A stretch of DNA of 13,747 nt, from positions 1 through 13,747 of the forward strand of contig JADGJA010000622.1 of the NCBI GenBank assembly GCA_027596035.1, written 5' to 3'. The translations under genes and the position numbers were made by a program. The notes under the pieces are model-generated. The model saw only the letters and a list, made by a program, of their open reading frames with translations, was not told the DNA's origin and searched no databases. This stretch comes from Thoreauomyces humboldtii. Its lineage: Eukaryota > Chytridiomycota > Chytridiomycetes > Spizellomycetales > Powellomycetaceae. Each line of letters opens with the position of its first letter. Positions within the stretch are counted from its first letter, which is position 1. This document shows, piece by piece, positions 174 to 13,747 of this stretch.

Positions 174-3100
174 CTACCTGCTCCAAACCGCTGTCCCCGA
201 GAGCGGCGCATGACACCACTCTCTTCCGTGCTCGCCCAGGCTAAGCCCTTCCTCCCCGAAGAGATCTCTCAAAAGATTTGTCCCGCATTCGATCCCCGCC
301 CTGTCGGTGCGGGCAGTCATCCATGCGGGAACCTTGGTGATCCTCCCTCGTCCGTCCACGACCTTCCTGGCTCCCAACATTCCAGCCCATACACCCAACC
401 AGACAGCGTCCACCTCGGAGCCCTTCGCGCACGCCCTGACGACCTCGCCTCCAGCGAGCCTGATGGCCTCGTCCTCATCCCCGAGACACCTCACACCGAG
501 GTCCAGGAACCTTCTCACGACGTCCCCGGTCAGCTCGACGGTCGCGACCATTTCCGCGACGAACCCGAGGATCTCCGAGACCATCCTCCTCTCACCCCTC
601 GTCCTGGCCGTCCTCCCGAGTCGGACGTCGACGACGGTCTCCACCCGACCGACGACGTCGTCCCGAACCCGTTTGGCCACGAACCCTTTGCTGGCGACGC
701 GACAGAGCGTGCCGATGCATCGCATGGCTTCCTCCACTACCCACGTCTCTCCGTCCCCGAGGCGTCGCGCGACCGAGGGCCACAGACGGTGCACGGTGGG
801 ATCCCGGTCCGTGGCGGAGAGGAGGGGGAGGCCAACGGAGAGGGTGGAGAGGATGAGGTGACGCAGACGGTACGTCGGGGTCGGGAGGAGGTACACGAGC
901 TTGGACAGGATCTTGAGCGTGAGGGTTTCGGAATGGGTTTTCGGTGGTGGATCGGGTTTGCTTTGATCGTGGGCGGTATCTGGCTGAGAATCTGGGTCGT
1001 GTGGTGGTGCGTCCATCGCGGGTGAGTTGAGAGGTGATGTCCCATCATTATCGACGACTCCTTCCTTGCCTCGTTCGGCAAAGTAGCGTTCGATCTCTTC
1101 TATCCTCGTAGCCTGCTTACTGAGGGAAGGAGAGGGGGTGGCCCCCGCTTTCGAGGTTGGACCAAATTTGACGTAGAGCTCGACCATTTCCTTCGAGCAG
1201 CCAGCGAACTCATCTGACACAGACGACGTTGAGGGGCTTGGTGGATCTTTATCTGAATCCGTCGATTCCTCCTTGTCCATTCCCTCGGCTATGGTCTCGA
1301 TCAGCTGGGCGAGACACGCGACGAGGGCCAGACATAGGCCTTCGCTCCTCGAATGCCACGCGTCCACCGCGTCGAGGATCTCGTCCACGGAATCGTCCAT
1401 GAACGGGACCACCTCGGGTCCGGCGATCCTGACCGCCGCGCAGAGGACCAGACACGCCCTCGGGTTCGAACTGACGTGTCTGAGCTTCCTGCTCACGACG
1501 TTGACGACGTAGTCGACGTTGTCCAGTATCAGCTCGATCACGGGCATGGAGGAGGAGGGTCGCTTCGGGTACCCGCAAGCGAGAGCCACGACGTCGAGTG
1601 CTGTGGCAGCCGATTCCGAGACTGCCGAGTTAGCGTCTCCCGAGTTCTCGAGCAGGATGTACAGGGCCTCCATGAGCAAGACCTGAACGTCTTGCCCAAG
1701 GATCTGAGCTTGTGTCGCCATCCCTTCCAGAAGAAGACACGTTTTCAAGATCACGGCATTGTAGTCCTGCATCGTTCGCTGCCTGGGAGCACCGATCGAA
1801 GGTATCTGCGAGCCTGGCAATGTGAGTGCTTGAAGATCCTGATGAAGTTTCGAGTCGTCGATGCTGGTCGTGTCATCCCAAAGCGAGGAGTGCACGTAGT
1901 CGCGCATGACAGACCTCGCCAATTTGTTGATACTCCGCAGGTTCGCATTCCGTAACGCAATGTCATGTGCATCCCAAACGGCATTGACGCCGACACCAGC
2001 AGCCCCGAGGGTGATCTCGTTGACAATCTTGATAGCCTGAGCCTGGAAGTCTTCCAGGGAGACGGAACGGACATGGACGAGGAAGTGGTCGACAAGGTGA
2101 TTTGCGTTTCCGTAGAATCCTAGCAACCGACACATCTGACTCAGCGCTGCCTCCACTCTGTCATCTCTGAAGTGCTGGTACCTCTTGCGCGGGAACCTGT
2201 GCGTTTCCATTGCGTCCGCGTGCCTGACATGGGAATCCTTGGCGGCGGAGAGCAACGCGAGGTTGCTACTGGCGGTTCGATCTTCCACGAGCTTCACGTT
2301 GGAGATGTCGAACGTCCATATCCGAAGCAAGGCTATGGACATTCTCGCCAGCACGGTGCTCATGGACGTCCGAATACCGTCCTTCAAAAGAAGCAGGTAC
2401 CCGTTGATGACTTGCAGCGCCTCGTGCTTCTTCCGATCGTCCGGTTGCATGACATGATGCGGAAGCGCCGTCATCATGGCGTAAAAGTTCTTTTTCAGGA
2501 TGGCAGTCAGCGAGTATTGGCCTCTGATGGCAAGTGAGACGGCCTCGAGCTGGTTGCGGCATTCCGTCGCCACCTGAGGAAAGTCGTCGTTCAAGTAGCC
2601 TACGAGCGTCTCAACTAGGATGGGGGTTGAGGAAACCATGCTGCGAGGGCATCGTAGAATGATGCGAGATGAGAACTGCAGAAACGCGAGACGTACACGC
2701 CAGTTTTCGTGATGTCGTATCGTGAACGAGTTTGCGAAAAGCCTGTTGAGCCTGACGACTGTGGTCGTGTGCCATTGATCGTCTCGTACGACGACCCGTC
2801 CTCGACTTTCACGAGTCGGCGAGGGGGAGGGCTTGGCCGCGCTCGAGGTATCCAGAGCAGAGCCAGGCTCTTTGGCCATGGTGACCAGGTCCTCCCACTC
2901 GACTACATCCTTGGCGAGAAACTGAGCGCAAGCACGATCGTTCATGGCGAGATCGACCATGGCACCGAAGGTCTCCAGACACCCGACGATGATTCGATGG
3001 CTCTGCTTCTCGTCCCGAACCATCACCCTGACCAAGGTGGATCCAACGGCCGGAAGGAACTGCGAGACGTGATCAGCGTCATGCACGCAAACGGCCAGGT

Positions 3101-3806
3101 CGCGAAGCACGCGCAAGGCGGCCACCTGGAGATCCACGTTGCGGTCAATGTCGATGACCTCGAGGAGAACGAGCACGAGGTGCGCGAGCGTGGGCTGGTA
3201 CTCTGGCCGGTCGAGACGCTTGAAGATTTCGGTTTCTGGTTTCGAGGGCTCTCGCTGGATGGTCGGATCGTTCTCGGCTGGAATGTCGACTCTTTGCAGG
3301 AGCTCGCTTAGACATTCCACGCCGACGGCCCTTAGCTCCTCTGGCGGGTTCGATTGGTTGGCAGGTTTCTTGACTCCCAGAGTGCCGATCCTTCCCCGTT
3401 CGATCAGTAGAGGAAGAGTTACGAGGAGCTCCCGATACATGTGCAAAGGCATTGCTCCCGGCGAGGCACCCTTTAGGAGGGCAAGTAGACACGTAAGGGC
3501 CCCTTCCACCGCGGCGAAGGCCGGAGAGGGTGCTTGGAGAAGCTGGAGGATGGGAGCGCAGATGTATTCGAAAAGGCCATCGAGCACCAGAGGGCCGTGG
3601 TCGGAGGAGGCTGAGAGGTGTGATATTGTGGACAGGAGTGCGGCGAGGGGTTGTGCTGCTGCTGGGTCCTTGTGAGTTCCTGCTCCGGGAGAAGCGCACT
3701 GCATCAAACGGACGCAGTCTGGCCTGAGACGCTGGAACGCCTGTTGCCTGAGTACTGCGATCTGCGTGGCCGACACATGCTGCTGGTCATGAATGGAAGT
3801 TGTCAT
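174..3806 (-). CDS. TTI1: TTI1-like HEAT-repeat protein (TTT co-chaperone complex subunit)
   Basis: Single open frame of 1210 aa from ATG at 3806 to TAG at 174-176. The frame stays open upstream to a GTG, but the ATG has A at -3 (CACCATGA), and homology to the TTI1 N-terminus (QAFQRLRPDCVRL, about residues 22-34) begins just after it. The protein is almost all amphipathic helix, as expected for HEAT/ARM solenoids. The C-terminal family block, about residues 979-1030 (YRLRHLIL, then RLWPSVARRL), resembles human TTI1 in spacing and content. A Ser/Pro/Asp-rich linker at about 860-955 looks disordered. In known systems TTI1 binds TEL2 and TTI2 and, with HSP90/R2TP, matures PIKKs (TOR, ATM/Tel1, ATR/Mec1, TRRAP) in cytoplasm and nucleus. 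The family is usually about 1000-1100 aa, so this one is slightly long. It has no recognisable intron, unlike its three neighbours. Family call is by remembered similarity, not a search. Confidence 0.88.
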   Translation of the reverse strand: MTTSIHDQQHVSATQIAVLRQQAFQRLRPDCVRLMQCASPGAGTHKDPAAAQPLAALLSTISHLSASSDHGPLVLDGLFEYICAPILQLLQAPSPAFAAVEGALTCLLALLKGASPGAMPLHMYRELLVTLPLLIERGRIGTLGVKKPANQSNPPEELRAVGVECLSELLQRVDIPAENDPTIQREPSKPETEIFKRLDRPEYQPTLAHLVLVLLEVIDIDRNVDLQVAALRVLRDLAVCVHDADHVSQFLPAVGSTLVRVMVRDEKQSHRIIVGCLETFGAMVDLAMNDRACAQFLAKDVVEWEDLVTMAKEPGSALDTSSAAKPSPSPTRESRGRVVVRDDQWHTTTVVRLNRLFANSFTIRHHENWRVRLAFLQFSSRIILRCPRSMVSSTPILVETLVGYLNDDFPQVATECRNQLEAVSLAIRGQYSLTAILKKNFYAMMTALPHHVMQPDDRKKHEALQVINGYLLLLKDGIRTSMSTVLARMSIALLRIWTFDISNVKLVEDRTASSNLALLSAAKDSHVRHADAMETHRFPRKRYQHFRDDRVEAALSQMCRLLGFYGNANHLVDHFLVHVRSVSLEDFQAQAIKIVNEITLGAAGVGVNAVWDAHDIALRNANLRSINKLARSVMRDYVHSSLWDDTTSIDDSKLHQDLQALTLPGSQIPSIGAPRQRTMQDYNAVILKTCLLLEGMATQAQILGQDVQVLLMEALYILLENSGDANSAVSESAATALDVVALACGYPKRPSSSMPVIELILDNVDYVVNVVSRKLRHVSSNPRACLVLCAAVRIAGPEVVPFMDDSVDEILDAVDAWHSRSEGLCLALVACLAQLIETIAEGMDKEESTDSDKDPPSPSTSSVSDEFAGCSKEMVELYVKFGPTSKAGATPSPSLSKQATRIEEIERYFAERGKEGVVDNDGTSPLNSPAMDAPPHDPDSQPDTAHDQSKPDPPPKTHSETLTLKILSKLVYLLPTPTYRLRHLILSTLSVGLPLLSATDRDPTVHRLWPSVARRLGDGETWVVEEAMRCIGTLCRVASKGFVAKRVRDDVVGRVETVVDVRLGRTARTRGERRMVSEILGFVAEMVATVELTGDVVRRFLDLGVRCLGDEDEAIRLAGGEVVRACAKGSEVDAVWLGVWAGMLGARKVVDGRGRITKVPAWMTARTDRAGIECGTNLLRDLFGEEGLSLGEHGREWCHAPLSGTAVWSR

Positions 3807-3917
3807 GGTGTGGAGAATATCATGGGGAGCAGATTGTTTGGACGAAGGGTCAGGGACGCACCACACCCGCCTGAGGTGGAGAGGGGTCTCGAGAAGGCAC
3901 TTGGGGACCGAGGGACA

Positions 3918-3949
3918 GGTGAGTCATGGTGAGTCATGGTGACTGACTG
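3918..3949. promoter_or_regulatory. Tandem TGAGTCA (bZIP, Gcn4/AP-1-type) sites
   Basis: Three successive 10-bp units: GGTGAGTCAT, GGTGAGTCAT, then a degenerate GGTGACTGAC. Perfect TGAGTCA cores sit at 3920-3926 and 3930-3936, one helical turn apart and about 115 bp upstream of the TTI1 ATG. TGASTCA is the established Gcn4/AP-1 core; use here is inferred. Confidence 0.45.
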
Positions 3950-5621: not shown

Positions 5622-8514
5622 ATGTCGGCAAAGAAGCCTGCATCGCGTCCTACCTCGTCAAAGGCCAAACCCACGACAGCCGGTACGACAGCCGCACCCA
5701 CCACATCACCTTCTCGCGCAACCTCTGGAAAACGATCCAACGCAAAACCAAACGTAAAGTCCTCCTCTCAGATCTCTCTCGAATCAAAGTCTCGGAGCGG
5801 GTCTAGGACAAGTCTTCCCCTCGAACCCAACAAGAGCCACGATGAACTCGCAATGGCGGCCCTCCCCGCGCTTCCTATCGGCGGCGCAGAGGAGGTGGTC
5901 GAGGCACCGCAGGTGGACGAGGGCGCAGAGTACGCGAAGAGAGTCGAGGGACTGCCTTTGCCGTATGAGCTTTTGAGAATGGGTTTGAGCAACCTCGGGA
6001 GAAGTCCTGTCGGATTGAAGCAAGTCTTTACGAAACTATCTTTGCCGGTGAGCTTTGTTTCAGCCGAGTGATTCTCAGCGGTCCCCAGAACTAAAGCCCC
6101 CGGTATCGCCAGAACGCGAAACTAAGATCGATTGGTATGCTGAAAAGCTATCCCTTCATACAAACGCTGGAGTTGCCTGGAAACGCAATCTCTGGTACGC
6201 AAAGGCTATACCTTTCGACTGTGGTCCAGCTTAGCTTGACCTCATCAACACCCGGTAGACGTTTCTGTTCTCTCCACCATGAGATATCTTGCTCAGCTCG
6301 ATCTGTCCAACAACAATCTCACGGAGGCCCTGGATTTCGATCCGCCACCGTACAACCTTCAACACGTCGACCTCTCTCGAAATCAGATTGCGGATATAGG
6401 GAATATGGGGAAGCATCGGTTTCTCATGAAGCTGTGCCTGGATCGTAAGTTACTAGGGAAACACTGCCGGAATGCTTTCATGTCCGATTCAGATATCTTT
6501 TTCTCTCATCAAAGGCAATTTGATCCGCACTCTTTCGGGCCTGTCGAACTGCAAGTACCTGACACACCTCAGCCTTGTGAACAACAGCATTTCCACCATC
6601 CAAGGGTTAGAGAACCTTCCATTGCAGTTTCTCGATCTTCGACGAAATCAACTCGCCTCACTCGACGGCATAGAGACCCTCTCCAAACTTGAAGAGCTTC
6701 ACCTCGCCCACAACTCCATCACAGACCTCTCCCCACTTACATCCCTGGCGTCCATCCGTCTCCTCTCGGCACCATCAAACGCCATCGAAACGCTAGCGGA
6801 GATAGTCCCACTCGTGTCCCTCCCTCTGCTGAGGGACCTGGACCTGTCGAACAACCCGTTGGTGAGAGAGGAAGGCTACAGACTGCAGACGGTGTTCCAG
6901 CTATCCCAGCTCCACGTGTTGGACGCCCTCCCCGTCAGTCCGGAGGAGAAGGTCAAAGCCGTCAACGTCTACAATCCTCCCCCGAGCGTGGTGGCGAGCG
7001 TCCAGCACGCGGCTATGCTCAAGAGCTGGGGGTTGAGGCAGATGGTCGTCATCAACAAGGTCGATCTCATGAGGGCGAAGAGACTGAGACCTGTCGTCCT
7101 GTGCGGTCCCAGTGGGGTCGGAAAAAGGTGAGAAGAGAACTTGGTCTCATGAAAGAAATCGCTACACTGACATCGTCTTCTTCCTTTTCGTTTCAGGACC
7201 CTTGCAACTCGCTTGATTCAAACCCATCCATCTGTTTATGGTCTCGCCATCTCTCATACCACTCGACCGCCACGCCCAGACGAGGTAGATGGCGTGCACT
7301 ATCATTTCACGACACGGGCGAGGATGGAAGAGATGGTCGAGAACGGCGAGTTCGTACAAGCCGTGGTACTGTTTGGAGAGTACTACGGTGTCAGTATCGC
7401 CGCACTTGACAGGGTCACGGAGGCAGGGAAGATCGCCGTCATGTGTTTGGAGCTTGACGTAAGTATCAAAGACAAGATGCCATATGGTTTCCCCACGAGG
7501 TGACAGTTCCTGATGTCATTTCCATGGCGCATCGTTTAGGGTGTCTTGACGCTGAAGCGGTCACCGCTGAAATGCTACTACGTGCACGTGTTGGCTCCCG
7601 ACATGCTCGTCTTGCAGAGTCGGCTCGAGACGCGGTTTCCTCAACCGCGCGGGATGGTGTCCGCGCAGGACGAGTTCGAGAACGAGAGCATTCCGGACGC
7701 CAGCACTCCCGATCTGATGACCAAGGATGAAGCTGATCGGAGCAGCATTGCGGAGAATGACGACGGACAGCATGAGGCAGAGAACGAGCAGGCGAACTTC
7801 GAGGACACAGAGGAGACGGCTTTTGGCGACCATCTCGACGAGACCAATACAAGGATCAGCTCACCGGTGTCCGGAGGACTCCAACAAGAGGGCTTGTCCA
7901 TACCCTCTACACCGCAACCGGTACAACTAGGTGAAGACGATGAAAACGCGCAAAACCCAGAGGAAAATCCCGCGGACGAGAAGGAGGAGGAGGAGGAGGA
8001 GGAGGAGGAGGAGCAAGTCATCCAGTTCAACGTAGACAACGCCGTCACTCCCGCCACTCCCATCACTTCCGTGACCCCTGAGACTACCACGTATCTCTTC
8101 GGTTCGCTCCCGGGTCACCCGCAGGTCTTCTCCCCATTCCAGGTCGATCTCGACAACCTCTCCTCCTCCTCTCGAGCCATCACGGCCTCCAACAACACGT
8201 CTCGAAAGGCCTCCTTCCAGCACATGACGGGATCTTCCATCAACTTCCCCCACATCCCCTATCCGGACGACGACCTCCAGGATCAGATCGAGCGACCCAC
8301 CACGGCAATCGTGGAACCACCGCCTGAGGATCAGCTGGATGCCACTTCGCCCCTCCACCGATGGATCGCCAAGGCCGCTCTCACGAGGGACTATGTCGAG
8401 GCGGCGGACATGTTCGACCTTGAGATCTGCAATGAGGACCTGGAAGAGGCGTTTGGGAGGTTGGAGGGGTTCTGCGAGAAGGAGAGATCAAAGAGTGCGG
8501 ACGAAGAGGATTAA
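5622..8514 (+). CDS. LRGUK: LRGUK: leucine-rich repeat and guanylate kinase domain protein
   Basis: Six exons: 5622-6047, 6113-6194, 6259-6444, 6515-7127, 7197-7458, 7540-8514; 847 aa. The joined exons follow animal LRGUK closely: the LGRSPVGLKQV block (about 125-135), then SDS22-type leucine-rich repeats (about 139-370; LDLSNNNLTEALDF, LSLVNNSIS, LHLAHNSITDL), a repeat cap (EEKVKAVNVYNPPP), and a guanylate-kinase domain from about 424. Kinase landmarks are the P-loop GPSGVGKR (429-436), SHTTRPPR (455-462), the HYHF Tyr471 and EYYG (497-500). After LQSRLETR the fold is interrupted by about 235 acidic, low-complexity residues and resumes at about 793-847 (FDLEICNEDLEEAF). ATG 5622 is the first in-frame ATG. 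The first 60 residues are Ser/Thr/Lys-rich. In mammals LRGUK works in basal body, manchette and sperm-tail assembly; a flagellar role here is inferred. It is convergent with the WD40 gene. Confidence 0.92.
6048..6112 (+). other. LRGUK intron 1
   Basis: 65 nt, phase 0, GTGAGC donor, CTAAA branch-like at 6091-6095, GCCAG acceptor. Joins LSLP to NAKLRSIG, matching the LRGUK family length with no gap. The two earlier AGs give either a 31-nt intron or an immediate stop. Confidence 0.88.
6195..6258 (+). other. LRGUK intron 2
   Basis: 64 nt, phase 1, GTACGC donor, TTGAC branch at 6236-6240, GGTAG acceptor. Joins NAIS to DVSVLSTMRYL within a leucine-rich repeat, continuous with the family alignment. 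Confidence 0.88.
6445..6514 (+). other. LRGUK intron 3
   Basis: 70 nt, phase 1, GTAAGT donor, pyrimidine-rich run, CAAAG acceptor. Produces KLCLDRNLIRTLSGL across the junction, a standard repeat spacing. No convincing branch motif seen. Confidence 0.85.
7128..7196 (+). other. LRGUK intron 4
   Basis: 69 nt, phase 2, GTGAGA donor, CTGAC branch at 7167-7171, strong TTTCAG acceptor. It splits the P-loop Arg codon: GPSGVGK-R-TLATRL. Confidence 0.92.
7459..7539 (+). other. LRGUK intron 5
   Basis: 81 nt, phase 0, GTAAGT donor, CTGAT branch at 7510-7514, TTTAG acceptor. Joins CLELD to GVLTLK, equivalent to the guanylate-kinase region around the conserved GV(K/R)xxK segment. Confidence 0.88.
7984..8013 (+). 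repeat. (GAG)10 trinucleotide tract, poly-Glu
   Basis: Ten perfect GAG codons, residues 672-681 of LRGUK, inside the acidic insertion. Uninterrupted triplet repeats are prone to length change, so tract length may vary between strains. Confidence 0.95.
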
Positions 8515-8788: not shown

Positions 8789-11700
8789 TCATACCCACGA
8801 CGACTCGACATCCCACCCAACCCTGTCTCTCCCGCATCTTCCCTTCTCGTTCCACATCTCCACCACCCCGCCGCGATCGTGAACAGTCCAAAGATGGACC
8901 GTCCCCGTCGTTGTCCCGACCGCCAGCCAGTCCTCCTCTATCAAACATCAGAAAACAACACGTCAATGGCTCACATCGCGAGGGGGCCTTCTGCCATCTG
9001 ATCCGACTGCAGTCTTACCAGGTGAAAGGGCCAGAGCGCCGACGGGACCGGAGTGTCCGGTGAGACTCCTAACAAGACAGTCACCGTCTCCCTTCCGGAG
9101 GTCCCACACCCGAACCTCGTTGTCATGTCCCCCCGTTAGGAAGAGACCTCCGGACGTCCAGGTGGCGCAGCTGATGCCGTCTCCTTCGTCACCCGTGCTA
9201 GCCGCTGCATGTTAGAATGGTGCATCAGAAGCACGGACATGATAAGCGGGAGGGATCGGCCATGAATGTGGTGCTATCCTCTTACCTTCGTGACGCAGGC
9301 GTAATGGTCGCTTCCTTTCGGCAAGCAAGGGGACTTTACTGTATCGGATGTCAAAGACGGCAGTGTGAGGTTGTGAAGTTCCGTCCGGATCGGAGCAAGA
9401 GAAGATGTAGCGTTCGCAAGGGCTACAGAAAGGGAAGCAGCGAAAATCAGCATCCCAGTTCATCACACACCTATCGCTTCTCGCGAGCTGGACCCGTGGG
9501 ATTTTTACCTGAATCCAGCGATGTTGACATCTAGCTGCCCGGTCCTGAGCTCCAAGCAGCTTCTCGTTGCTTCACCCGCCACGTCAAAGATCCGCAGGAT
9601 CCCGTCACCGTACTGCGTGAAATGCGCGCCGTTCTCACCCGGCAGGGCCGCATTTCCCGTGACCCCCACGACCGCCCACTTGCCCGAGGGAGACACTTCG
9701 ACCGACGCCACAGCGTTCTCCCCCACGTCCCATGTTGCGAAAAGCTGCGACTTCTGGAGGTCATAAAGCCGTACAACGCCCGAATCGCGTTCGCCTCGTC
9801 GACGTTCGTGGCCAACGATGAGACGGCCAAAGGACGAGACACGGCCAAATGTCACGGTCGTAGCAACTCTATATGCGTCTTGGGAACTTTTAAACGCTAG
9901 TTTAGCAGATCATGCGTAAACAGAGGTCTTTATTCTTGATACATGACTGGGTTTATACCTCGTCTCCTCCGGAAGCAAAGCCGGCGACAAGTCCCCAACC
10001 CGCCACTCTTCATCGTCCGGAAGCTGGAACAAGCCGAAAACCCTCGCGGACCCATCGTACGAAGCTCCGGCGACAACACAGGGTCCCGGGTTCTTGGGCA
10101 TGACCGCCAGCTTTTGAAACCCCATGTTGCGAAACCGTGGAGCACCTAGACGAACGAAGGTCAATAGAGGAGAAGATTCCGAAGCACATCACGGTAACTC
10201 ACGTCTACCCCACTGCCCTTCCATCGCATCGGGCACCTCGGCCACGATCTTCGACCTTCCTGTCAGTGGGTCCCAACCTTTGATCCAAGGATCTCGATCC
10301 CCGACAGTGAAAAGGAACTCGCCATCCGGGTCGAAGCTCATGTCCATGACGCTCGCGTGAAGCATCGCGCCCGTCGGGTGTGTCCATGGATGCGAGACCC
10401 CGTTCTCGCCCACGATGCTTGGGTCGGGCTGGTTCACGTCGACCAACACGCAGCCGCCGGGTTTGTTGTAATTGAGAGAGTGGTCGACGAAATGGGAGGA
10501 TGCAAGAACTAGGTGAGGACCAGGCGGGACTGGAGTTTTCAAGGAGGAAGGCAAGTCTGACGAGTCGGTCCATTGCCTTTGATGGGTGATGGCGAACTGC
10601 ATGGAGGAGACGTGGCCGGATCCCAAGTGGTGTGTAGCGATACGTTCGAGGCGCTTGGTCACTCGCGACCGCATCATCTGGGCAGCAATTCAACATTAGA
10701 CCTTGCTTTCCCCGTCGTATGCTTTGAAAACCCTTATATATCTCTTACCCCCGTGCGTCCGGCATCGGCACCAACATCCATTTCCCGTGATGCGATCAGA
10801 TTCGTGATGCACCGTTTGGGAGCCAGAGGTACCTCCTTCCTTCCTCTCCTCTCTACAACCTGCTGCCGCATCCCAGACCGAGCATCCTTCGCTGCAGTCT
10901 CGATATTCTGAAGGGTCAACCCCGGTCCTTGCTTCTCGTCAACAAGGAGCGCCGTGGGTCCGTCGATCGGTCCAAAGTGAAGATACCGATAACAACGGCC
11001 TGAGAAATCAGTAGAAAAACGACAAGAAATGTAAGAACGTTGAAAGATGAATACAATCAAGTTTTGAAATTGTGTACAGCTCGAGAAACGCCTTCGTCCA
11101 GCTCTCCAAACTCTTTTCGACTCACGTGACGAAAGGTTGACAACATCTGCAACTTCAGAGCTCGGTACGCCGGTCCTGGCAAATGCGAGATTCTCGTCTC
11201 CTGTCGCTCTCGCGAGAGCACCAGCAGCTTGTCGAGTGACATTGACGAGCTTGCGATCTCTATCGAATTTCGAAAAGCGTGTGTGCTGAAAATATCTCGA
11301 TTCAGCGAAGATACCCAACGTTAAGGCGCCAATGGTAAATGGTTGCTGGTCCCGAATCAGGTGATTCGATGATGTTGGAAACGCCGTGTGCGAGTTATTC
11401 AGATTAAGACGCTTGTCCACAGGGCGAACGGTCCTAGGTCGCTTGATCGCCAAGCTGTCCCCTGATGGTGCAGAATGACTCGGAGACTTTCTTTTGATCC
11501 CACGGCGAGAAATTGACTGTGATCCAGGAGGTGTGATGGCTACCGCGCGCTCCAAATTGACCGTATCTACTACAGAACTGACCTCGTCGTCATCTGAGAT
11601 GAGTTCAATATGACTAGGACCCCTGCCAGAGCTCGAAGTAAGATCCCGAAAGGCAGTCGAAGAGCGGTTCATGCTGTGTGCAGCAGCGATCAGAGCTGAG

Positions 11701-13514
11701 AGAGCCGCAGAATTCGCGGTTGCTTTCCTTATAGCCGCGGCAGATGGTGTCACCTTAGGAGATGGCCGATGATCCATCAAAGAGCCGGCAACCCTCGCTT
11801 TGATTTCCGACGTCGTAGAGCCCCTGGGTCTGGCAGATAGGGAGGAGAGAACAGCTGCGAATGATGCAGGCAAGTCCGCCTTCTTTCTCGCAGCCTTCCC
11901 CAAGGTGGTCAAGGGCTCGGCAGAGATACTCGCCGGAAAAGATGGAGCCAATTTTACAGGTGCGGAGGGCCGTGGCAAGACAATGCCCACGAGTTCCTCC
12001 ACGTCCACATTGTCTTCCTCTTCTTCTGAAGAGCTCAGGGACATGTCCATATCCACGTCACTGTCACTGTCCGGTGCGACAAAGATGTATTTTGCGGAAG
12101 ATGGCTCCCACGTGGATGCAACAGAACTTGAAGTCGATTCCCTATCTGCATGAACTGTGTCGCGTGTCGAGACGAGCTCTGATTCTGTCGCTTTGGATAA
12201 ACCTGTAGATTTGTCCTCGCGGAGCGAATTTCGTTTCGTTATGAAAACCTGATGCGTGCGAGCTTCGCCTGGTCCTTTCGAAATTTCCGACTCTGCGCTT
12301 GAATGCTGGCGGGCCGAGGAGGGTGGACCGCGGTAGACAAGCGCGGGAGGGTCCCAGCCCCAGGCTAATTGCAAGTGCGCACGTCCTAGCATGCTTGCGG
12401 CATCTGGGTACATCGACTCGTCTAACAAATCGATCGCACCATCTGATGAGGCTATAGCATCGGACACAAGCGAAGGTGGTGTGCTTGCGAACTTTGTCAT
12501 AGCATCCGAAGCAGAGTCTTTGACATCGGACTTTGAGCCAGTACGAAATTTCCGGATTTTCACCGACACAAGGGGTATAGAGTCGCACATGGCAGGTTGT
12601 GGTGAGACCTTCCGAATTTCCGCGTACTTCGCACTTTTGCCTGCATTCGGTATCGTGGCCAGCACGGAGGGTATACGCTGTGACAAGAAAGTAGGAGACT
12701 GACGTGAATCAGCAGGACCACGGGCATCGAGCTTTTTCAAGTGCCAAGCGGTTTTAGACTTTTTCATGTCCCATGGCGAGCGACGTGACGCCTTGGCTCC
12801 GACTTTCGTTGAATGTTTATTGTGTATTCCGACGACAAGAGAAGCTTTTCGAGCGCGAGGACGTTCTGGCGAGACTGACGGTAACACGAAGGGAGACCTT
12901 CGGATGCCGTGTGGAGATGGGAAAGAGGAGGCTGTGACGCCTGGTGCGGGCGATTTTTTACGATCCGGTCTTTTTGCAGGAACTGGTTTGGTTGCCCGGA
13001 GTTTTCGACGGGTTTGGGTTGGCTCATGCGCTCGTAAGGGCACCGGATTCTTCGGCTGGTGCGAAGGTATTGAGCGTCGTGAACCGGCTACCGGTGAATT
13101 CGAGGGCTGGGACTCGTCCGAGTCCGAGTCAATGACAAACACCTGGCCCTCAAAGGATCGATGCACCGGACCTGAAGCAGTGTGACGCGAAGTTGCTGTA
13201 AAGTCTGACTTTGACTGCCTCAGAGTCCCTTCGCATTGCTGAACACCAGAGGAGAACCGTGAGTGAGGTGCCGAATGGGGACCAGATAGAAGTGGATTGA
13301 CCGGGCGCGACTGAGCCCGGGCAGACGAGGAGACGGGACGCGAGGTTGAGGCTAAGTGGTTCGGTCGCGGCGGTACCTTCTTTGAAGGTTGGCGTGGATG
13401 ATGTGGATGTGGGTGGTGGGGTGCAGTTGGATAGCCTCGTTTGTGGTGAGGGGAAGAAGGTGGGACCTGCGGCCTGTTGGTGAGTGGCTGTGACGGTGGA
13501 CAATCAGGAGGCAT
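8789..13514 (-). CDS. Large WD40-repeat protein with SIM-rich disordered N-terminus
   Basis: Eight exons on the minus strand: 13514-11126, 10999-10749, 10677-10203, 10145-9959, 9868-9509, 9422-9286, 9204-9019, 8937-8789 (TGA); about 1377 aa. Start is the first ATG (13514); the open frame continues upstream only to a TTG. Residues 1-about 770 are Ser/Pro/Arg-rich disorder, with a His/Pro run near the start, hydrophobic-plus-acidic motifs at 125-134, 361-367, 476-490 and 635-644, an acidic run at 493-506, and a likely nuclear signal (RRGIKRK 670-676, KRPR 691-694). Residues about 881-1377 form a WD40 propeller: FDPDGEFLFTVG, VSPSGKWAVVG, SPCERYIFSCSDPDG, EVRVWDLR and DWLAVGTTTGTVHLW are visible blade pieces, about eight in all. 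Probably a nuclear scaffold. The WDLR (with nearby FDIR) fits the WDxR motif of DDB1-CUL4 receptors. No specific orthologue recognised. It is convergent with LRGUK. Confidence 0.82.
8938..9018 (-). other. WD40-gene intron 7
   Basis: 81 nt, phase 1, GTAAGA donor, CTGAT branch at 8947-8951, GATAG acceptor. Joins ALALSP to EEDWLAVGTTTG, completing the last blade. Confidence 0.9.
9205..9285 (-). other. WD40-gene intron 6
   Basis: 81 nt, phase 1, GTAAGA donor, CTGAT branch at 9224-9228, ATGCAG acceptor. Joins LRLRHE to AASTGDEGDGISCATW; the next AG downstream is out of frame. Confidence 0.87.
9423..9508 (-). other. WD40-gene intron 5
   Basis: 86 nt, phase 2, GTAAAA donor, CTGAT branch at 9446-9450, long pyrimidine tract, CTGTAG acceptor. 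Creates DVNIAGFSPCERYIFS, a textbook WD40 strand pair. Confidence 0.9.
9869..9958 (-). other. WD40-gene intron 4 (acceptor uncertain)
   Basis: Phase 2, GTATAA donor. An ATATAG acceptor gives 90 nt and joins LLPEET to RVATTVTFG. An AAAAG acceptor at 9887 is also in frame and would add six residues. TAG is preferred over AAG on general fungal usage. Confidence 0.65.
10146..10202 (-). other. WD40-gene intron 3
   Basis: 57 nt, phase 1, GTGAGT donor, TTGAC branch at 10160-10164, TCTAG acceptor. Joins EGQWGR to RAPRFRNMGFQ. Confidence 0.85.
10678..10748 (-). other. WD40-gene intron 2
   Basis: 71 nt, phase 0, GTAAGA donor, CTAAT branch at 10695-10699, CCCAG acceptor. Joins GADAGRTG to MMRSRVTKRLER, linking the disordered half to the propeller. 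Confidence 0.82.
11000..11125 (-). other. WD40-gene intron 1 (126 nt, stop-free)
   Basis: GTGAGT donor, CTGAT branch at 11007-11011, T-rich tract, CTCAG acceptor, phase 1. It is 42 codons with no stop, which makes the first two exons look like one 932-codon reading frame. The intron translation (rich in Phe, Arg, Ser, Cys) differs from both flanks. Confidence 0.75.
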
Positions 13515-13747
13515 GTGCTTCGACGCTCGCAAGCTGTAGAAGAGAAGAATAAGACGGGGGGAAACGTCTCAAGCAAAACGAAGGAGCGAGCGGTCTTGCA
13601 TGTGCGTGAAGGAAGGGGGTGCTAATGGGGTGGTGAAAGGGTGGGTGAGAGAGGAGTGTGATGGAGAGGGGGAGCGATGTCCGATAGGTCGTACACCCCC
13701 CGACCCCTCTCTCTCTCCTCCTTTTGCCTCTCGCCGAACCTCACCCC
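13515..13747 (-). promoter_or_regulatory. Upstream region of the WD40 gene
   Basis: 233 bp upstream of ATG 13514. It holds a CT-rich plus-strand (AG-rich minus-strand) tract at about 13704-13732, a small upstream ORF, and TTCTACAG close to the ATG that may be the acceptor of a 5'UTR intron. Confidence 0.45.
13569..13601 (-). other. Possible upstream ORF (10 codons plus stop)
   Basis: ATG at 13601 reads MQDRSLLRFA and stops, 54 nt before the main ATG. If transcribed and not spliced out it could lower translation of the WD40 protein. Chance occurrence is quite possible. Confidence 0.25.

What the first reader, a model, noticed from the sequence alone, without database searches (positions are those of the whole stretch)
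7639..8346. Guanylate-kinase fold of LRGUK split at the LID by an acidic insertion of about 235 residues
Up to LQSRLETR (about 548-555) the protein follows a guanylate kinase. A canonical enzyme then has a LID of a dozen or so residues and continues with a helix, an FDxxIxN strand and a DLxxA helix. Here about 235 Glu/Asp/Ser/Thr/Pro-rich residues, including ten consecutive Glu, intervene before RWIAKAALTRDYVEAADMFD and NEDLEEAFGRLEGF complete the fold at the very C-terminus. I know of no LRGUK described with this arrangement. It would turn the nucleotide lid into a long acidic arm, perhaps a tubulin or basic-partner binder or a phospho-regulated element.
Basis: partly seen in the sequence, partly recalled or inferred. 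Interest (0 to 1): 0.82.

Follow-up and report, generated by a model that had tools for sequence, protein, structure and literature searches.

The report
Disordered acidic loop inside chytrid LRGUK
A flagellar protein of a chytrid fungus carries a long, floppy, negatively charged loop in the middle of its guanylate-kinase-like domain; the loop is real, but relatives show it is one case of a loop that grows and shrinks across swimming fungi, in a domain that has probably lost its enzyme function here.

Summary

Two parts of the interpretation change. First, the arrangement is not singular: the LID is enlarged (19-314 aa) in 30 of 33 fungal LRGUKs examined and compact (8-11 aa) in 15 of 17 non-fungal ones. 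Loops of different genera are not recognisably related, and strong negative charge is limited to a few lineages. Second, it is probably not a working nucleotide lid: the P-loop Lys is followed by Arg, and three residues that are E, T, D in 28 of 28 control kinases are Q, V, C here, a pattern shared (V or I) by all 7 Powellomycetaceae proteins.

Most likely a pseudo-kinase domain of a central-apparatus (C1b) protein that tolerates, and may use, a disordered loop.

The parts
5622..8514 (+). LRGUK gene, six exons (5622-6047, 6113-6194, 6259-6444, 6515-7127, 7197-7458, 7540-8514), 847 aa, stop codon included
   Evidence: Splice model; identical to deposited P0001
7105..7127 (+). P-loop GPSGVGK and the first two bases of the Arg codon (residues 429-436; the codon is completed at 7197): Arg436 follows the P-loop Lys
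7357..7359 (+). Gln490, at the place of yeast Glu70 (E in 28 of 28 controls)
   Evidence: yeast numbering of this residue inferred by spacing
7390..7392 (+). Val501, at the place of Ser/Thr81 (T in 28 of 28 controls)
   Evidence: numbering inferred by spacing
7444..7446 (+). Cys519, at the place of yeast Asp99 (D in 28 of 28 controls)
   Evidence: role of Asp99 from passages of PMC4325336
7636..8358 (+). LID insertion, residues 556-796 (241 aa), acidic, predicted disordered
   Evidence: canonical own-genome GK C250 has 10 aa here
7984..8013 (+). Ten GAG codons = ten Glu, inside the trinucleotide repeat 7974-8013
8359..8511 (+). Residues 797-847: C-terminal part of the GK fold (helix, strand, helix)

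Best explanation
The gene encodes the chytrid orthologue of LRGUK/CFAP246, a leucine-rich-repeat protein of the C1b projection of the flagellar central apparatus. Its GK domain folds normally but is most likely a pseudo-kinase used as a structural or protein-binding module. The short LID loop between the two LID arginines is a tolerant surface position; in zoosporic fungi it has repeatedly lengthened, here partly by trinucleotide-repeat expansion, into a disordered segment. In this species it is 241 residues and strongly acidic, a flexible negative loop hanging from the domain. Shown by sequence or prediction: gene, place and length of the insertion, fold completion in the model, low pLDDT of the loop, distribution in relatives, replaced active-site letters. 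Inferred: C1b location (from orthologues), absence of catalysis, and that any role of the loop rests on bulk and charge rather than on a conserved sequence.
For: Orthology: LRR array and Guanylate_kin; best PDB sequence match is mouse LRGUK 9ijj_4P over 106-545. C1b: mouse LRGUK placed there, modelled with SPEF2 (PMC12297659), and Tetrahymena Cfap246 (PMC8175508); SPEF2 and CFAP69 domains are found in this genome. Fold completed and loop disordered; same elements in the Powellomyces protein with a 32-aa LID. Enlarged LID in 30 of 33 fungal against 1 of 17 non-fungal LRGUKs (the one is a doubtful partial protein), with at least 5 crossings of the 100-aa mark on the tree. Fast loop evolution with conserved flanks. 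Replaced residues. The genome has two other GK loci with canonical letters. LRGUK models without GK in Spizellomyces and Phlyctochytrium and in Tetrahymena (PMC8175508) suggest the domain is dispensable in some lineages. Mouse LRGUK cut at R528, by the offset near residue 536 here and so before the LID, no longer binds HOOK2 (PMC4363142).
Against: The P-loop Lys, Ser35, Arg39, Arg42, Glu45, Tyr51, Tyr79 and both LID arginines are kept, so residual nucleotide binding or activity is possible. Long loops also occur in proteins that keep E-T-D (Chytriomyces, Blyttiomyces, Entophlyctis luteolus, Dinochytrium), so loop growth does not follow loss of these residues. Negative charge is shared by Thoreauomyces and four Geranomyces proteins, which could mean it is selected. 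Foldseek itself aligned only 136-139 columns to most listed GMP kinases, that is the part before the loop; helix 794-808 lies in blocks of pLDDT 74 and 65. No localisation data exist for this species.
Confidence: 0.6

Rival explanations
1. The acidic loop is a functional arm: a charge-based or phospho-regulated docking element for a basic partner such as tubulin or a motor adaptor.
For: Net charge -38 to -51 is shared by Thoreauomyces and four Geranomyces proteins although the sequences diverged; LRGUK works on microtubule structures in mouse (PMC4363142, passages).
Against: No conserved motif between genera; only 32 aa in Powellomyces of the same family, near-neutral loops elsewhere; the acidic tract comes partly from a trinucleotide repeat; motif counts lack a background control.
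Confidence: 0.2
2. The GK is still an active GMP kinase in the axoneme and the long LID tunes ATP access.
For: C1b has been proposed as a site of nucleotide enzymes (PMC9113940, passages) and LRGUK as affecting local GMP (PMC8175508, passages); P-loop Lys, GMP-phosphate residues and LID arginines are kept.
Against: Q, V, C at three positions that are E, T, D in 28 of 28 controls, and Arg after the P-loop Lys, a letter absent from the controls. The own-genome C250 and C648 loci keep E, T, D.
Confidence: 0.08
3. Gene-model artefact: part of 7639-8346 is an intron, or the annotation fuses pieces that are not translated together.
For: No RNA data; Powellomyces hirtus is annotated with only 32 residues here; open reading alone is only about p 0.006.
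Against: No GTRNG donor inside the stretch while 5 of 5 introns of the gene have one, and those introns are 64-81 nt; long loops at the same place in Geranomyces, Fimicolochytrium and Rhizophlyctis records; the C-terminal flank is homologous and in frame.
Confidence: 0.06

Closest known systems
LRGUK (animals), mouse LRGUK in the sperm central apparatus, PDB 9ijj
   Same: LRR array followed by a GK domain; Arg or Lys after the P-loop Lys in 14 of 17 non-fungal proteins and His at the Asp99 place in 14 of 17
   Different: LID of 8-9 residues in the named animal proteins examined except the partial beetle protein P0159; animal proteins carry a further C-terminal tail
LRGUK of other zoosporic fungi (Geranomyces, Fimicolochytrium, Rhizophlyctis, Chytriomyces and others)
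   Same: Same domain order and an enlarged LID at the same place
   Different: Loop length 19-314 aa, and the sequence is not recognisably shared between genera; Globomyces and Terramyces have compact LIDs of 8-9 aa
CFAP246/FAP246 (Tetrahymena, Chlamydomonas)
   Same: LRR protein of the C1b projection (PMC8175508, PMC9113940, passages)
   Different: Tetrahymena Cfap246 lacks the GK (PMC8175508). For Chlamydomonas FAP246 the papers differ: PMC8175508 and PMC7999657 describe EF-hands and no GK match, PMC9113940 a GK domain (passages)
MAGUK GK domains (Dlg)
   Same: A GK fold without catalysis that keeps the phosphate-contacting Tyr, Tyr and Arg; in Dlg it reads phosphorylated Pins (PMC3335814, passages)
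   Different: The Ser35-to-Pro switch is absent (Ser455 kept); no PDZ/SH3 domains were found by Pfam; protein binding by this GK is untested
Canonical GMP kinases (human, mouse, yeast; own-genome C250)
   Same: The whole fold
   Different: Letters at the E70, Ser/Thr81 and Asp99 places, Arg after the P-loop Lys, and the LID length

Membership tests
LRGUK / CFAP246 | N-terminal LRR array followed by a GK domain | tested here: met
   Pfam LRR families and Guanylate_kin 423-555
LRGUK / CFAP246 | Closer to LRGUK than to other LRR or GK proteins | tested here: met
   Mouse LRGUK is the best PDB sequence match, 4.9e-75 over 106-545; placed among fungal LRGUKs on a tree made of LRGUK-like rows only
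LRGUK / CFAP246 | Located in the C1b projection of the central apparatus | not testable with these tools
   Inferred from mouse and Tetrahymena; SPEF2 and CFAP69 domains occur in this genome
Active GMP kinase | Complete GK fold including the part after the LID | tested here: met
Active GMP kinase | Guanine-recognition and catalytic letters E70, Ser/Thr81, Asp99 | tested here: not met
   Q490, V501, C519; E, T, D in 28 of 28 controls
Active GMP kinase | P-loop with a small residue (G, S or T) after the Lys | tested here: not met
   Arg436; G 24, S 3, T 1 in 28 controls
Active GMP kinase | Residues that contact the GMP phosphate (Arg39, Tyr51, Tyr79) | tested here: met
   R459, Y471, Y499; roles from passages of PMC4325336
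[quoted passage not shown]
   Needs an enzyme assay
MAGUK-type GK protein-binding domain | Pro in place of hinge Ser35 | tested here: not met
   Ser455; the S35P switch is from PMC3335814 and PMC4325336, passages
MAGUK-type GK protein-binding domain | Binds a phosphorylated or acidic peptide in the old GMP pocket | not testable with these tools
   Needs a binding assay

The most novel reading that the evidence does not exclude
The GK of LRGUK has become, independently of MAGUKs, a reader of phosphorylated or acidic peptides in the central apparatus: the phosphate-contacting residues (Arg39, Tyr51, Tyr79) are kept in nearly all LRGUKs examined while, in Powellomycetaceae and animals, guanine-recognition and catalytic ones are lost, including Asp99, which hydrogen-bonds to Ser35 in the partly closed yeast enzyme. 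In Thoreauomyces and Geranomyces the acidic LID loop would be a tethered competitor that folds back on this pocket, so that partner binding in C1b is gated by the charge or phosphorylation of the loop.
Probability: 0.1. Interest if true: 0.68.

Novelty: new variant of a known kind. Interest (0 to 1): 0.4.

Why it matters
C1b has been described as a 'chemical factory' for nucleotides in the axoneme, and LRGUK's GK as a possible regulator of local GMP (PMC9113940 and PMC8175508, passages). The residue pattern argues that in Powellomycetaceae, and probably in animals, this GK is not a GMP kinase, which purified domains can test directly. The LID series in zoosporic fungi, from 8 to 314 residues with homologous sequence on both sides, is a natural experiment on what a GK domain still needs its LID for.

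Tried and rejected
Intron or fusion artefact: unlikely, not excluded.

Loop as a shared or mobile domain: a search with residues 556-800 found only the protein itself at E<=1 among 4793 candidates. Sensitivity is limited; even the Geranomyces loops were not found.

Conserved motif in the loop: local alignment scores between genera did not clearly beat shuffles; 285 of 300 (G. michiganensis), 53 of 300 (G. variabilis), 41 of 300 (Powellomyces), 25 of 300 (Fimicolochytrium) and 74 of 300 (Rhizophlyctis) shuffles reached the observed score. Motif counts in the same call had no background control and carry no weight.

'Loss of the P-loop Ser/Thr means no catalysis': my first argument, weakened by my own control. 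That position is Gly in 24 of 28 control kinases, Ser in 3, Thr in 1. I keep only that Arg does not occur in the controls. The Asp101-to-Glu change is not counted as loss, since the own-genome C648 GK also has Glu there.

Loop growth caused by active-site loss: not supported; Chytriomyces keeps E-T-D with 151 and 175 aa, animals lost them with 8-9 aa.

GK loss in Spizellomyces punctatus and Phlyctochytrium arcticum (P0135, P0144): both models stop just before the GK, but their genomes could not be read, so truncated annotation is possible. The short loop of Powellomyces could not be checked against its genome either.

Rows dropped: one search used 52 proteins; P0021 and P0131 (partial) and P0032 (degenerate, unnamed) were left out. 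The tree (quick method, SH-aLRT only) left out P0130, P0145 and P0159, so 49 of 52. The 28 controls were picked by me among the 33 listed hits with Guanylate_kin and no LRR; P0042, P0043, P0045, P0046 and P0107 (adenylate/guanylate kinase multidomain proteins) were not used. These controls share words with the query and are mostly plants, algae and oomycetes. LID lengths of Blastocladiella (62, 134), Quaeritorhiza, Polychytrium (33 and 27), P0145 and P0159 depend on the alignment. Several rows are near-copies (four Geranomyces, three Allomyces, two Globomyces), so counts are not independent.

Fold searches: listed rows are LRR and GK proteins; this excludes nothing else. A search listing for pseudo-kinase terms and one for guanylate kinase with chytrid terms gave no paper on fungal LRGUK among the rows shown.

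Full report
What it is. The window is contig C577 of a 20.7-Mb genome in 823 contigs. The gene at 5622-8514 (+) has six exons and encodes 847 aa, identical to the deposited protein HKX48_007442 of Thoreauomyces humboldtii, order Spizellomycetales, family Powellomycetaceae. Pfam finds LRR families and Guanylate_kin at 423-555, covering positions 3-135 of 182 of the profile; in Globomyces, with a compact LID, the same profile matches 3-178. The best PDB sequence match is LRGUK of the mouse sperm central apparatus, 9ijj_4P. In this genome the other matches to the protein are much weaker LRR and GK places, E 6.5e-14 or worse, among the candidates that the tool scored.

The insertion. Between R555 and R797 lie 241 residues (7636-8358). 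Yeast GMP kinase residues named in passages of PMC4325336 (Ser35, Arg39, Arg42, Tyr51, Tyr79, Asp99) correspond to S455, R459, R462, Y471, Y499 and C519 with identical spacing. The LID arginines Arg136 and Arg147 then correspond to R555 and R797, allowing the one extra residue of the yeast chain before the LID (ranges). That paper puts the mobile loop of the LID at residues 135-141, so the insertion is at the LID tip. The segment is 22% Asp+Glu, net charge -45. Ten Glu come from ten GAG codons in a trinucleotide repeat.

Is it coding? The frame is open for 708 nt, which 12 of 2000 dinucleotide shuffles also reach; codon use favours the frame only slightly; no GTRNG donor lies inside, while 5 of 5 introns of the gene start that way. 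None of this replaces RNA evidence. The comparative evidence below is stronger.

Relatives. Of 52 LRGUK-like proteins aligned, 50 have a GK: 33 fungal and 17 not. In the fungal ones the LID is 8-9 residues in 3 (two Globomyces, Terramyces), 19-75 in 16 and 110-314 in 14. In the others it is 8-11 in 15 of 17; the exceptions are P0145 (1) and the partial beetle protein P0159 (179, alignment doubtful). On a tree built without the LID columns the 100-aa mark is crossed at least 5 times (for the 'long' group against all other rows the table gives 6, of which starred branches force 4). Loops evolve fast: 56 and 72% identity in two Geranomyces pairs against 91-92% for LRR and GK. Between genera they are not recognisably related. 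The C-terminal flank 797-838 is 50-57% identical between Thoreauomyces and four other members of the family. Net charge is -38 to -51 in Thoreauomyces and Geranomyces, -21 in Rhizophlyctis, and between -11 and +9 in the other rows.

Is it an enzyme? In 28 control kinases the residue after the P-loop Lys is Gly (24), Ser (3) or Thr (1), and the E70, Ser/Thr81 and Asp99 places hold E, T, D in 28 of 28. Here the letters are R, Q, V, C. Q, V or I, and C are shared by all 7 Powellomycetaceae rows; Fimicolochytrium belongs to this family. Arg follows the Lys in 32 of 33 fungal LRGUKs (Ser in Rhizophlyctis) and Arg or Lys in 14 of 17 others. Of the 33 fungal proteins 18 keep E, 19 keep T and 16 keep D, so the loss is not fungus-wide. 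Arg39 is kept in 32 of 33 and 17 of 17 (the one is a gap), Tyr51 in 31 of 33 and 17 of 17, Tyr79 in 33 of 33 and 17 of 17; Arg42 in 32 of 33 but only 8 of 17 (all). Asp99 hydrogen-bonds to Ser35 in the partly closed yeast enzyme (PMC4325336, passages); it is Cys here and His in 14 of 17 non-fungal proteins. The genome has two further GK loci: C250 and C648, with GKST P-loops and E, T, D, so GMP kinase supply need not rest on LRGUK. LRGUK models of Spizellomyces punctatus and Phlyctochytrium arcticum end before the GK, and Tetrahymena Cfap246 lacks it (PMC8175508, passages).

Function. Orthologues sit in C1b: mouse LRGUK, modelled with SPEF2 (PMC12297659, passages), and Tetrahymena Cfap246, whose loss had minor effects on motility (PMC8175508, abstract and passages). 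SPEF2_D5 (E 4.4e-24) and a partial CFAP69 match (E 3.5e-6) are found in this genome. In mouse, truncation at R528 abolishes HOOK2 binding (PMC4363142, passages); by the offset this lies near residue 536 here, so the cut removes the LID, the rest of the GK and the tail. I therefore take the protein as a C1b subunit whose GK is a structural or protein-binding pseudo-kinase, with a disordered surface loop at a tolerant site. Whether the charge is used is open. The bold alternative, a phosphopeptide reader with a tethered acidic competitor, follows the Dlg precedent (PMC3335814, passages) and is not excluded.

In print. Searches of the held library found no paper with both LRGUK and chytrid and three with CFAP246 or FAP246. 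A 2026 atlas of fungal flagellar proteins holds none of LRGUK, FAP246, C1b, SPEF2, guanylate or Powellomyces in its main text (PMC13358043, find only; supplements not read). Most subscription journals are not held, so absence here is weak.

Verdict. Observation confirmed; interpretation partly supported. A real, widely variable LID loop in a probable pseudo-kinase domain: a new variant of a known kind.

Noticed in passing
window 177-3923, minus strand: Open frame of 1249 aa (stop to stop) matching all four TTI1 (TELO2-interacting protein 1) Pfam models.
   Followed up: partly
window about 8963-10689, minus strand: Several frames with weak WD40 matches; the best PDB match of 10189-10689 is a bacterial WD40 protein at 5e-7, with CFAP52 only at 0.0014. 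A WD40 gene convergent with LRGUK; whether it is flagellar is unsettled.
   Followed up: partly
window 10734-13568, minus strand: Open frame of 944 aa without a Pfam match at E<=0.01.
   Followed up: no
P0135 (Spizellomyces punctatus) and P0144 (Phlyctochytrium arcticum): LRGUK models that end just before the GK domain and group together on the tree (SH-aLRT 91), though NCBI taxonomy puts P. arcticum in Chytridiales.
   Followed up: partly
P0019 (Entophlyctis luteolus, 1051 aa) and P0010 (Polyrhizophydium stewartii, 1303 aa): LRGUK models joined to other domains by their precomputed Pfam lists, adenylate kinase in P0019 and PF00806/PF22493 in P0010; fused genes or fused annotations.
   Followed up: no
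P0019 (Entophlyctis luteolus) and P0009 (Entophlyctis helioformis): The two Entophlyctis proteins fall in different starred clades, with LIDs of 231 and 45 aa; the genus name may cover unrelated lineages.
   Followed up: no
P0016 (Rhizophlyctis rosea): The only one of 33 fungal LRGUKs with Ser after the P-loop Lys; it also has a 234-aa LID.
   Followed up: no
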